A stretch of DNA of 64,000 bases from positions 372,001-436,000 of the forward strand of contig CAJNAR010000001.1 of the NCBI GenBank assembly GCA_905220665.1, read 5' to 3'. Below, in pieces: positions 55,774-59,426 of this stretch. Position 1 is the first letter of the stretch; the number at the start of each line of letters is the position of its first letter. The DNA comes from Albugo candida (lineage: Eukaryota > Oomycota > Peronosporomycetes > Albuginales > Albuginaceae). The notes under the pieces are model-generated. The model did no database searches. It was given only the letters and a program-made list of their open reading frames with translations, and was not told the DNA's origin. A program made the translations under genes and the position numbers.

Positions 55774-56109
55774 ATGGGCAAAACGGACTCGGCACCCGAT
55801 ACGTTGGGCAAACTTTTGGAAAGCTGGAAAGCCGAAGAACAAGTTTTGAAAGAGCAGGAACGCCGCATCTATGAATTGGAGGATTCATATCTGAAAGAAA
55901 CGATCGTTGAAGGAAATGTGTGGACAGGATGGGGAGAAAGTCGTTCGGCTCCGATACGCTTTCGAAATGCAAACATTCGGCGGCGGAAACGGCAACGCGA
56001 GCAATTACCGATCGTTCTCAGCAAAGAAGAGCAAGAAAAAGTCACTCATTCTCGTTTTGCTTCATTTTCATCCATCACTTCTCCCGCAGAATATAAAGAC
56101 ACTAAGTGA
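55774..56109 (+). CDS. EAF6: EAF6-like subunit of histone acetyltransferase complexes
   Basis: Small coiled-coil subunit shared by NuA4/NuA3 (Tip60, MOZ/HBO1 in animals). Intronless, 111 residues. The EAF6 domain reads LGKLLESWKAEEQVLKEQER, then RIYELEDSYLKET and GNVWTGWGE, matching the helix plus the conserved YLE-T..GN..GW block. A basic segment (NANIRRRKRQREQ) follows. It starts 75 bp after the HROB stop on the same strand. Confidence 0.88.
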   Translation: MGKTDSAPDTLGKLLESWKAEEQVLKEQERRIYELEDSYLKETIVEGNVWTGWGESRSAPIRFRNANIRRRKRQREQLPIVLSKEEQEKVTHSRFASFSSITSPAEYKDTK

Positions 56110-56366: not shown

Positions 56367-59300
56367 ATGCCCGCGAGCAAGAAAAGAGTGCAGAACGCAC
56401 GCGGTACATCTGGAGGACAATATCGTCAGTCTGTCCCTGCAGCGCTTCGAAAATGGGCTCACATTTGGCATGGAGTACGCATCGCCGGAGATGACACTTT
56501 TATGACGGCCCATATGCCAATAGAGCCCTCAAGCCCATCAAATGAGGTCTCACCGTCCTTCAGCTACACAAATGCCAACCTCTCACCTCAACTTGTCGAT
56601 ACGCAGACGCCAATGATCCTCAAACGGGTCTCAATTTGGCTTCGATATATCACAAAAAGTCTTGCATGTAAACGTGACGACGAGCCTTTATGCACATTCG
56701 GCCAAAACAACGGACCGAGGAGCTACCAAAATGTGAAAGACCCAAGCAGTGCAAACAGCAGACGCGCGTTTTTTCGGAGTAAGGTTGTGCACACATCTAA
56801 GCAGTCCTTATTCCCGTCATTACAAACGATTGAGAATCCGAGGAAACGATATAAAGACTCATTGTATGTGCTTTTGAATATGCGGTGGCCACTTTTGACG
56901 ACAGTTTTAAGCGGTGTCTTTATCGTCACAATTATATTCTTTACGTTAATTTTTCAAGTGGTGTGTGGTGAGCCCTCCGGATTCTTGGAAGCATTTGATC
57001 TCACGTATCAGACGTTTAGCACTGTTGGATTCGGCGTTGTCTCGCCGTTGAAAACGTGTGCAAATATGATGAGCGTCGTTGTATCATTCTGGTCCATGTT
57101 GATCACATCGGCGATCACTGGTCTTGTATTCGCCAAATTCGCCAAACCAAAGGCGAAAGTAGCTTTCAGTCGAGTTTGCGTCGTCCAACCATACGGCAAG
57201 AAATACCTCGCTTTGGTTGTGCGTGTTGCAAACGCTACGCAGTCTCGAGATATCACTCATGATGTGATAATGGAAGCCAATTTCAAGCTCAATTTACTTC
57301 GTATCGAAAAGAGTAGTGCTGTCGATCCCAAGGTCGAGGATCATTCTGCCGCGGTCGACCGCTTGTGCTCTTACAATTTGCGATTGTTACAAAACAATTT
57401 CGTCACATTTCGAATGGGCGTCGCAGTGGTTCATATCGTTGATGAGCAAAGTCCGTTATACGGAATGACTCGCTCAGATCTGCTTCAGTCGGATATGATC
57501 TTGGAAGTTGGGATGGCAGGAGTTGACTCCACTTTGCAAGATACCGTCACCGAAAGACATGTGTACACCGCAAGAGATGTCAGGTGGGGATATCGATTTT
57601 CAGAATTACTTGATTTTGACGAAGTGAATGCCGAAGTTGTGATGGATTTTGAGAAATTGAGTAAGACATATCTCGCTCCAATCGAAGAAAGTCGATATGT
57701 TACAAAGAAGTCACAACGTTCATCAAAAGCGAATGGAGACCCGAATATGTCTCAAAGCGCTGGAGAACCGATAAACGGATCAACACGTGGCGACTTTCCC
57801 ATCGGTGGGATTGATGTTGAAAGTAGAGGACGGAGCGCCATCAAACCACGAAGAGCGAGTGTATGTCGGACCAAATATGAAGGTGGCGATCAAATTGACT
57901 CAGGCAGTTGTCATCCTTATTACAATTCAGTCGTGCTCCGTCGATATTCTCGATCCGCTTCTCTTGGCTCTAGTGTCGTAGACACACCCATACAAGTTCG
58001 CAAACAATCAAAATGTTCTTTTGCAATGGAGCCACTTTTTGAATCGCTTCTTAAACCATCAGTTGGGACGCAACGGCTACCGAAAATGGAAGGAGTTGAA
58101 GACAGTTCACAAAGAACTCATCGAAATACTCCTACAATCGCTTGTTCTGGGCGTATCCGGCAAGAGAATAGCGCTACGGACGATACGTTTCTGGCACCAT
58201 CACAACGTCAAAAGAAGAAACTACAATCTCAATTGGCTGGAGATGCCACTAGTGATGATGAAGAAGATCAAGACGATGATGAGGATGATGAAAATGATGC
58301 TGAGAGCACCGGTGATATTCAGGACAGCCCCGCGAATAAACAGGTCAACTTGAGTCGCACTTCATCAAAAGCTATACTCAAGTTCTCTTCGGAGCGAGGC
58401 CACAGCCATTCTGTGTTTCCTCCTGAATTACCAAAGCGAGAATCTCCACAAATTACCCGATCTCGTGCAATCAATTACTCCAATGTCTCCGTCGACGTCC
58501 AAGATACTCCACGATTTGTTCGCATTCGTCCAATTCGTATTCCGAAATCGTACAGCTTTATGCGTTTGTATCACAGCGCACTGTATGAGCGGTGGCCTCG
58601 CATTATCGTCATTATGATTATCTGCTTTCTCGGCATCAATACAGTATTTGCCATTCTCTACTGGCTTGATCGGGATGCTTTTGAGGTCAGTGATGCCCTT
58701 CAAGTCACGTCGTTCGAAAAGGCTTTCTACATGAGCGTTCACACGTTGTCGACTGTCGGGTACGGTTCTGTCGCACCAACAGCGAAATCGGTGTATCTCA
58801 ATCTTTGCGTAATGATGGAATCTGTAGTAGGATTAATTACAGTCACAATCATCACAGGAATCGCTTGGTCCAAATTTGCGCGTCCGAGAGCACATATTCA
58901 TTTCTCGTCCAATATTATCATTTCAACGTTTTACGGGCATCGCTGTTTGATGTTTCGTGCTGCAAACACTCGACATAGCGGTGATGTTCACGAGAACTTT
59001 TTCCGCATCGGTGTCATCCTTACAAACCGAAAGACAGGCTTACGCCAAGTGTATGACGTCCCGCTAGTGACGCCAGAGTGGCCATCGATCAAGCTTCCAG
59101 CCACATTGATCCACATAATCGACATACATTCTCCGTTTTATCGGTTTAATTCGACAGAAGACTTGTCGAGTGCTCGGGTCGCGCTGATTGCGCTCATGAC
59201 AGGTCTCGATACGACATTTGCCGAAAATGTATATGCTCGAAAAATGTATTTTTGGGATGATTTTGCATTCGATCAGCAATTTGCAGACTTTGCGACCATA

Positions 59301-59426
59301 TCAAGCGAGGGAATTCATGTGAATTTCAGGTATTTTGATCAGCTTGTACCCTTTACCTGGCAAGAACAAGACGAGCACGAGCAAAAAGGAGAGCTAGGGC
59401 AAAAGTTGGGCTGGCAATTCCTTTGA
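56367..59426 (+). CDS. Tandem (two-module) inward-rectifier-type K+ channel
   Basis: Intronless, 1019 residues from the ATG at 56367. Two full Kir/KirBac-type modules are fused in one chain. Module 1: TM1 about 176-200, pore helix, filter TVGFG (219-223), TM2 about 233-256, then VFAKFAKPKAKVAFS and an immunoglobulin-like cytoplasmic domain to about 460. A linker of about 270 residues carries a run of acidic residues near 630-650. Module 2: TM1 about 744-770, filter TVGYG (796-800), TM2 about 808-832, then WSKFARPRAHIHFSSNIIIS and a second cytoplasmic domain with CLMFRAANTRHSGDVHE. A functional pore would need only two chains (inference). Normal Kir channels have one module and assemble as tetramers. 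Confidence 0.9.
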   Translation: MPASKKRVQNARGTSGGQYRQSVPAALRKWAHIWHGVRIAGDDTFMTAHMPIEPSSPSNEVSPSFSYTNANLSPQLVDTQTPMILKRVSIWLRYITKSLACKRDDEPLCTFGQNNGPRSYQNVKDPSSANSRRAFFRSKVVHTSKQSLFPSLQTIENPRKRYKDSLYVLLNMRWPLLTTVLSGVFIVTIIFFTLIFQVVCGEPSGFLEAFDLTYQTFSTVGFGVVSPLKTCANMMSVVVSFWSMLITSAITGLVFAKFAKPKAKVAFSRVCVVQPYGKKYLALVVRVANATQSRDITHDVIMEANFKLNLLRIEKSSAVDPKVEDHSAAVDRLCSYNLRLLQNNFVTFRMGVAVVHIVDEQSPLYGMTRSDLLQSDMILEVGMAGVDSTLQDTVTERHVYTARDVRWGYRFSELLDFDEVNAEVVMDFEKLSKTYLAPIEESRYVTKKSQRSSKANGDPNMSQSAGEPINGSTRGDFPIGGIDVESRGRSAIKPRRASVCRTKYEGGDQIDSGSCHPYYNSVVLRRYSRSASLGSSVVDTPIQVRKQSKCSFAMEPLFESLLKPSVGTQRLPKMEGVEDSSQRTHRNTPTIACSGRIRQENSATDDTFLAPSQRQKKKLQSQLAGDATSDDEEDQDDDEDDENDAESTGDIQDSPANKQVNLSRTSSKAILKFSSERGHSHSVFPPELPKRESPQITRSRAINYSNVSVDVQDTPRFVRIRPIRIPKSYSFMRLYHSALYERWPRIIVIMIICFLGINTVFAILYWLDRDAFEVSDALQVTSFEKAFYMSVHTLSTVGYGSVAPTAKSVYLNLCVMMESVVGLITVTIITGIAWSKFARPRAHIHFSSNIIISTFYGHRCLMFRAANTRHSGDVHENFFRIGVILTNRKTGLRQVYDVPLVTPEWPSIKLPATLIHIIDIHSPFYRFNSTEDLSSARVALIALMTGLDTTFAENVYARKMYFWDDFAFDQQFADFATISSEGIHVNFRYFDQLVPFTWQEQDEHEQKGELGQKLGWQFL
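58249..58311 (+). repeat. Acidic low-complexity coding tract in the channel linker
   Basis: GAT/GAA-rich imperfect repeats encoding about 18 consecutive acidic or polar residues between the two Kir modules. No other simple repeat of similar length was seen in this gene. Confidence 0.65.

What the first reader, a model, noticed from the sequence alone, without database searches (positions are those of the whole stretch)
56367..59426. Two complete inward-rectifier K+ channel modules fused in one protein
The sequence shows two selectivity filters (TVGFG and TVGYG), four TM segments and two Kir-type cytoplasmic domains separated by an acidic linker of about 270 residues. Kir and KirBac channels are known as single-module subunits that form tetramers. 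A tandem chain would make a dimeric pseudo-tetramer with two non-identical pore halves, as two-pore-domain channels do for the voltage-independent K2P class. The Tyr-to-Phe change in the first filter and the divergence between modules suggest asymmetric roles. I know of no described channel with this layout, but cannot search.
Basis: partly seen in the sequence, partly recalled or inferred. Interest (0 to 1): 0.92.

Follow-up and report, generated by a model that had tools for sequence, protein, structure and literature searches.

The report
Tandem Kir potassium channel in oomycetes
Water moulds carry a conserved potassium-channel gene in which two complete inward-rectifier-type units, normally separate proteins, are fused in one chain with two consistently different halves, so two copies probably assemble into one lopsided channel.

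Summary
One uninterrupted frame at 56367-59426 (+) encodes 1019 residues with two complete KirBac-like modules; both Pfam Kir domains hit twice above cut-off. Of 58 long homologues found, 57 carry two filters, from 13 named oomycete genera; that search could not return single-module proteins. Module asymmetry is conserved: filter GFG in module 1 (53 of 55), GYG in module 2 (55 of 55). A cysteine pair flanks the module-1 pore at nearly animal-Kir spacing and is absent from module 2 (0 of 55) and from KirBac-like proteins taken as bacterial (0 of 98). Trees indicate one fusion, most simply an internal duplication, before a second tandem paralogue arose. The genome keeps two single-module Kirs. 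Best mechanism, inferred: two chains form a 2+2 pseudo-tetramer, K2P-like in stoichiometry but built from Kir modules. Corrections: the linker is disordered, not acidic overall (40 acidic, 39 basic), and no acidic rectification residue exists. Ten searches of open-access papers found tandem Kv and CNBD channels in oomycetes, not tandem Kir.

The parts
56367..59426 (+). Single-exon gene for the tandem Kir-type channel, 1019 aa plus stop
   Evidence: open frame; 57 of the 58 homologues have two filters
56367..56831 (+). N-terminal region, residues 1-155; conserved start MPASKKR and W...W.GV, otherwise largely low-confidence
56847..56966 (+). Module 1 slide helix (161-171) and TM1 (174-200), ending at conserved Cys200
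   Evidence: AF2 secondary structure; C200 in 34 of 34 aligned rows
56982..57035 (+). Module 1 pore helix and selectivity filter TVGFG (filter 57021-57035)
57054..57140 (+). Module 1 TM2 (230-258), including conserved Cys231 at its start; no acidic residue at the rectification position (Thr247)
57153..57686 (+). Module 1 Kir cytoplasmic domain (263-440)
57687..58508 (+). Linker, residues 441-714, predicted disordered, net charge near zero
   Evidence: pLDDT under 50 for 462-612 and 625-716; composition
58026..58076 (+). Conserved short motif in the linker, MEPLFESLLKPSVGTQR (554-570)
   Evidence: EPLFE or EPLLE in 40 of 58 homologues
58254..58304 (+). Acidic tract DDEEDQDDDEDDENDAE (630-646)
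   Evidence: sequence; composition
58548..58664 (+). Module 2 slide helix (728-740) and TM1 (743-766)
58710..58766 (+). Module 2 pore helix and selectivity filter TVGYG (filter 58752-58766)
58791..58868 (+). Module 2 TM2 (809-834)
58890..59354 (+). Module 2 Kir cytoplasmic domain (842-996)

Best explanation
The gene makes a four-TM, two-pore potassium-channel subunit built from two diverged KirBac-type modules. Shown by sequence: the anatomy, its conservation, the fixed asymmetry, and trees that fit a single fusion. Inferred: two chains come together so that modules 1-2-1-2 surround one pore, giving a filter of two GFG and two GYG strands and a cytoplasmic vestibule of four Kir domains, two of each type. 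Fusion would thereby fix the stoichiometry and the alternation of non-identical subunits. Gating is probably by lipid or ligand acting on the Kir domains and slide helices, as in KirBac and Kir. Strong Mg2+/polyamine rectification is unlikely, so it is probably a weakly rectifying K+ conductance that sets membrane potential or K+ flux. Use in spores or zoospores is plausible but not shown for this gene.
For: Two full Kir modules in one frame. Two filters in 57 of the 58 homologues, in 13 named oomycete genera. Both modules are similarly constrained: mean pairwise identity 0.655 (module 1) and 0.70 (module 2) against 0.298 for the linker, over 32 sequences, so neither is decaying. Module-specific features are kept: GFG 53 of 55 against GYG 55 of 55; Cys before and after the pore in module 1 in 52 and 55 of 55 by fixed window (34 of 34 for both when aligned), 0 of 55 in module 2; Gln 52 of 55 against His 52 of 55 at the pore-helix position. 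Slide helices and basic residues after TM2 are present in both modules (sequence). K+ pores need four pore loops (established knowledge), so a two-loop chain needs two chains, or partners.
Against: No complex prediction, expression or current data. The 274-aa disordered linker does not force the two modules of one chain into the same pore. Two single-module Kirs in the same genome could be partners. The AF2 model is a single chain of modest confidence (pLDDT 65.2, pTM 0.64). One-module entries exist in the database and were mostly not checked one by one. Module asymmetry alone would also fit a regulatory module.
Confidence: 0.72

Rival explanations
1. Four chains assemble into two separate homotetrameric pores (all module 1, all module 2) tethered by the long linkers.
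For: The linker is long and predicted disordered; each module on its own has the domains of a KirBac subunit.
Against: Linker length varies widely between gene models (2 to 383 aa by fixed offsets over 60 sequences, median 243), while the module asymmetry is nearly fixed; tethering two independent pores would not by itself explain one-to-one retention of both.
Confidence: 0.1
2. One module conducts and the other is mainly regulatory, or the tandem chain co-assembles with the genome's single-module Kirs.
For: Divergence between modules (23% identity); two single-module Kirs in the genome.
Against: Both filters are conserved and both modules similarly constrained; the two single-module Kirs group with Kir6.2, apart from the tandem modules, in the tree.
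Confidence: 0.13
3. Two genes or transcripts mis-joined by the open frame, or a precursor split by proteolysis.
For: No RNA or protein data here. One-module entries exist: P0061 and P0069 bear the same P. cinnamomi source name and contig length, i.e. probably one locus annotated as two proteins; P0062, P0063, P0066, P0068, P0070, P0071 and P0074 also hold about one module and were not traced to their contigs.
Against: No stop in 1019 codons; in-frame linker motif in 40 of 58 homologues; two filters in one protein in 13 genera, also in another P. cinnamomi entry, P0044. The one-module search took only proteins of about module length, so it could return nothing but pieces. P0064 is 100% identical to window residues 554-1019 from contigs of at most 2058 bases and is listed as the tool lists a protein encoded by the window itself.
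Confidence: 0.05

Closest known systems
KirBac channels (KirBac1.1, KirBac3.1)
   Same: Each module aligns over nearly its whole length: KirBac1.1 at 5.6e-37 (module 1) and 6.4e-34 (module 2), KirBac3.1 at 1.2e-32 (module 2); module 1 is 34% identical to the KirBac1.1 segment
   Different: One module per chain: all 8 distinct IRK_C places in 7 bacterial genomes were single, in frames of 300-440 aa; no flanking Cys pair in 98 KirBac-like proteins taken as bacterial
Eukaryotic Kir (Kir2, Kir3, Kir6)
   Same: Same domain pair; module 1 has a Cys pair flanking the pore at -19/+8 from the filter, against -20/+8 in Kir6.2 as read (that it is a disulfide in animal Kirs is recalled)
   Different: Weaker sequence match than KirBac; two modules per chain; no acidic TM2 rectification residue. 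The genome's eukaryotic-type Kirs are separate genes
K2P (TWIK/TREK) channels
   Same: Four TM and two P loops per chain; presumed dimer
   Different: K2P lacks Kir cytoplasmic domains and has an extracellular cap after TM1 (recalled); here the TM1-to-pore-helix gaps are about 5 and 15 residues, and no K2P chain is among the rows shown (60 of 158; 57 of 57; 59 of 59)
Two-repeat tandem Kv-like and CNBD channels of oomycetes, dinoflagellates and a chlorarachniophyte (PMC7576140, passages read)
   Same: Same lineage tendency: tandem, diverged repeats, first and second repeats in their own clades
   Different: Those are 6TM repeats; the paper's one mention of Kir concerns the origin of TOK
Toxoplasma gondii Kir homologue (PMC3283738, passages read)
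   Same: Kir homologue with four predicted TM segments in two regions
   Different: Only its second TM pair has a filter-like sequence, according to the paper; not examined here
Engineered Kir tandem dimers (recalled)
   Same: Two Kir subunits linked covalently to fix stoichiometry
   Different: Laboratory constructs; this one is natural and conserved

Membership tests
Kir/KirBac inward-rectifier superfamily | Kir transmembrane domain (Pfam IRK) | tested here: met
   Two hits, 26.3 and 34.1 bits, cut-off 22.7
Kir/KirBac inward-rectifier superfamily | Kir cytoplasmic domain (Pfam IRK_C) | tested here: met
   Two hits, 56.5 and 45.6 bits, cut-off 22.5
Kir/KirBac inward-rectifier superfamily | K+ filter T-x-G-Y/F-G in every pore loop | tested here: met
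   TVGFG and TVGYG; conserved
Kir/KirBac inward-rectifier superfamily | One module per chain, four chains per channel | tested here: not met
   Two modules per chain; the assembly itself was not testable
Strong inward rectifier (Kir2-like) | Acidic residue at the TM2 rectification position (Kir2.1 D172 equivalent; position recalled) | tested here: not met
   T/V/L/I in module 1 (34 rows), V/T/I in module 2 (33 rows), none acidic; the cytoplasmic rectification residues were not tested
Kir/KirBac inward-rectifier superfamily | K+-selective, lipid-regulated current | not testable with these tools
   needs electrophysiology
K2P two-pore-domain channels | 4TM/2P chain | tested here: met
K2P two-pore-domain channels | Extracellular cap between TM1 and first pore helix (recalled) | tested here: not met
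   TM1 ends at 200, pore helix starts at 206 in the model
K2P two-pore-domain channels | Closest sequence relationship to K2P, no Kir cytoplasmic domain | tested here: not met
   KirBac is the best PDB match of both modules; IRK_C present twice
Oomycete tandem Kv-like/CNBD channels | Two 6TM repeats with voltage sensor or CNBD | tested here: not met
   Four hydrophobic peaks in all; no CNBD hit, and Ion_trans only under its cut-off (23 against 25 bits, module 2)

The most novel reading that the evidence does not exclude
A natural 'two-pore Kir' class: an oomycete-wide, obligately two-chain, two-fold-symmetric Kir channel in which covalent fusion fixes an alternating GFG/GYG filter, only two of the four subunits carry the extracellular Cys pair, and the four Kir domains work as two functionally distinct pairs. 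It would have arisen independently of K2P by duplication of a KirBac-like gene.
Probability: 0.6. Interest if true: 0.82.

Novelty: new variant of a known kind. Interest (0 to 1): 0.7.

Why it matters
Kir and KirBac channels are textbook four-subunit assemblies of one-module chains. A conserved natural tandem would be an independent replay of the step that gave K2P channels, now with the Kir gating domain retained, and a natural system for asking how non-identical subunits share filter gating and ligand gating. The layout is kept across 13 named oomycete genera, which include plant and fish parasites (recalled), and was not found outside oomycetes in the searches made here, which are limited (see Tried and rejected).

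Tried and rejected
Fused gene model or chance: rejected as the main reading, kept as a rival at 0.05 because no transcript or protein data could be seen. Whole-linker acidity: rejected. Loss of the pore-helix Glu as a special feature: dropped, because KirBac-like proteins taken as bacterial also mostly have Gln there (58 of 98; Glu 35, His 5); only the module-2 His is unusual. Two independent acquisitions: not favoured. joins modules 1 and 2 with support 97/92, but grouping module 1 with eukaryotic Kir is not rejected (p-AU 0.224), and rooting rests on three eukaryotic rows, one partial and one long. The bacterial rows were one group but not (2 changes; 6% of bootstrap trees with 1).

Limits of the searches. 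One search takes only proteins of 0.55 to 1.75 times the query length, so one-module proteins could not appear among its 58. The profile search (57 returned) scored only the 7997 candidates sharing most words and missed the known relatives P0052 and P0054-P0058; no returned entry bore a non-oomycete name, but many bear none. Absence outside oomycetes is therefore weak evidence. The proteins called bacterial are unnamed for the most part (110 of the 118 new entries among the 120 listed of 194; 98 had a readable filter; 109 of suitable length, thinned to 24, plus KirBac1.1, went into the trees). Dropped before the tree: six paralogue rows and the two rows of P0060.

Searches that gave nothing: viral contigs (10 stretches, no relative); a second tandem copy in this genome (one match); tandem Kir in bacteria (3 genomes reached through loci, and 5 of 200 drawn from one phylum, one genome shared; 8 distinct places, all single); NCBIfam (two weak hits under cut-off). 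Papers: ten searches, some listing only part of the papers found (20 of 25, 25 of 40, 15 of 171), gave no tandem Kir; the library is open-access PMC only. Nine papers were opened, by term search or one section, none in full: PMC5322657, PMC10031896, PMC3283738, PMC12223298, PMC7409359, PMC7718214, PMC4820453, PMC7576140, PMC5023847. The prokaryote-to-oomycete transfer survey PMC5023847 has no 'potassium' or 'ion channel' in the main text held.

Full report

Correction. The linker 441-714 is 274 aa and close to neutral (40 D+E, 39 K+R). Only a stretch near 601-670 is acidic (19 D+E, 7 K+R). A short motif from residue 554, (M/L)EPLFEPLL..GTQR in relatives, recurs as EPLFE or EPLLE in 40 of 58 homologues and is the clearest island of conservation in the linker; its role is unknown.

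How widespread. A search of about 5.8 billion proteins, limited to proteins of 0.55-1.75 times the query length, found 58 with E <= 1e-3. All those whose printed name shows an organism are oomycetes: Lagenidium, Pythium, Globisporangium, Phytophthora, Nothophytophthora, Hyaloperonospora, Peronospora, Bremia, Peronosclerospora, Aphanomyces, Thraustotheca, Achlya, Saprolegnia. 57 of 58 have two filters. The exception, P0053, is cut short; another protein from a contig of the same length (7651 bases, probably the same contig) carries a second module (P0083). Several species appear more than once, so counts are of sequences, not independent events. Five sequences (P0054-P0058, Phytophthora and Peronospora) form a second, diverged tandem family with STGYG/TVGYG filters. 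Against this, one-module entries also exist (P0061-P0063, P0066, P0068-P0071, P0074). P0061 and P0069 look like one P. cinnamomi locus annotated as two proteins, while another P. cinnamomi entry, P0044, is tandem. I take these as fragments or split models but did not trace them one by one.

Asymmetry. In the 55 main-family sequences with two filters, module 1 reads GFG in 53 and GYG in 2, and module 2 reads GYG in 55. P0053 and the second family also have GYG in module 1, so the Phe is a feature of the main family, not of every tandem. A Cys lies before the module-1 pore in 52 of 55 by fixed window (34 of 34 in an alignment) and after it in 55 of 55. Module 2 has neither in 55. Of 98 KirBac-like proteins taken as bacterial with a readable filter (of 110), none has the pair. 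In the second family only the later Cys falls in the fixed windows (5 of 5; the earlier 0 of 5). The spacing, -19 and +8 from the filter, is almost that of Kir6.2 (-20 and +8, read). That this pair is a disulfide in animal Kirs is recalled. The pore-helix residue is Gln in module 1 (52 of 55) and His in module 2 (52 of 55); Gln is common in the bacterial set, His is not (5 of 98). No acidic residue occupies the TM2 rectification position in either module (34 and 33 rows), so strong rectification is doubtful. In the window's own protein a module-1 TM2 Glu present in 31 of 34 rows is Val (V239).

Constraint. Among 32 sequences the mean pairwise identity is 0.655 for module 1, 0.70 for module 2 and 0.298 for the linker. 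Neither module is decaying.

Origin. In a tree of 53 modules (24 bacterial rows kept from 109 at under 50% identity, plus KirBac1.1), the module 1s including those of the second family lie on one side of a branch (100/99), and the module 2s likewise (99/97). The fusion is therefore most simply older than the split of the two tandem families and of Saprolegniales from Peronosporales. With three eukaryotic Kirs as outgroup (six paralogue rows and the two of P0060 dropped, 48 rows), modules 1 and 2 are sisters (97/92), which fits internal duplication of a KirBac-like gene; a grouping of module 1 with eukaryotic Kir is not rejected (p-AU 0.224). Whether the ancestor came from bacteria or is an old eukaryotic lineage is open.

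In the same genome. IRK_C is found at two other places, each in pieces that suggest introns. The one compared with the PDB (C160, exons joined by eye) matches Kir6.2 best (2.2e-27). In the tree both group with Kir6.2. So the genome has one tandem KirBac-like channel and two apparently ordinary Kirs. The genome is 38.9 Mb, and a TPI-GAPDH fusion gene lies beside one of the Kirs; that such a fusion marks stramenopiles is recalled. The species was not identified.

Mechanism. Because a K+ pore needs four pore loops, two chains are the simplest assembly, with modules alternating 1-2-1-2 (inferred, 0.72). Rivals are two tethered homotetramers, a regulatory module or mixed assembly with the single-module Kirs, and a split product. 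The long linker is the main reason not to be surer. In P. infestans the summed expression of genes classed IRK rises 5-fold in spores (PMC5322657, cation-channel section); which genes contribute is not told there. IRK channels are also named among differentially expressed genes of Plasmopara halstedii (PMC10031896, passage).

Literature. Ten searches of the open-access PMC library gave no tandem Kir. The nearest precedent, PMC7576140 (passages), reports two-repeat tandem Kv-like and CNBD channels in oomycetes, dinoflagellates and a chlorarachniophyte, and mentions Kir once, for TOK. A survey of K+ channels in pathogenic protozoa (PMC3283738, passages) found Kir homologues only in Cryptosporidium and Toxoplasma and no K2P; its Toxoplasma Kir has four predicted TMs but one credible filter. 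Several database entries for the oomycete proteins already carry Kir names, so the genes are annotated, but I found no paper that remarks on the tandem layout.

Verdict. Real, conserved and, as far as searched, undescribed. It is a new variant of a known kind: Kir by family, K2P-like by presumed stoichiometry.

Noticed in passing
L009:3840-4719 (own genome C150, - strand): Single-module Kir gene in pieces (filter TIGYG), grouping with Kir6.2 in the tree.
   Followed up: partly
L010:3983-5328 (own genome C160, - strand): Second single-module Kir gene in pieces (filter TIGFG), best PDB match Kir6.2.
   Followed up: partly
L010:1953-3785 (-): Triosephosphate isomerase fused to glyceraldehyde-3-phosphate dehydrogenase in one 611-aa frame, next to the second Kir gene.
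   Followed up: no
window 58026-58076: Conserved linker motif (M/L)EPLFEPLL..GTQR shared by many oomycete tandem Kirs; possible docking motif, unexplained.
   Followed up: partly
P0054-P0058 (database proteins): A second, faster-evolving tandem Kir family with STGYG/TVGYG filters in Phytophthora and Peronospora; no counterpart was seen in this genome.
   Followed up: partly
window 55774-56106 (+): Short frame just upstream matching Pfam NuA4 histone acetyltransferase subunit (2.8e-8).
   Followed up: no
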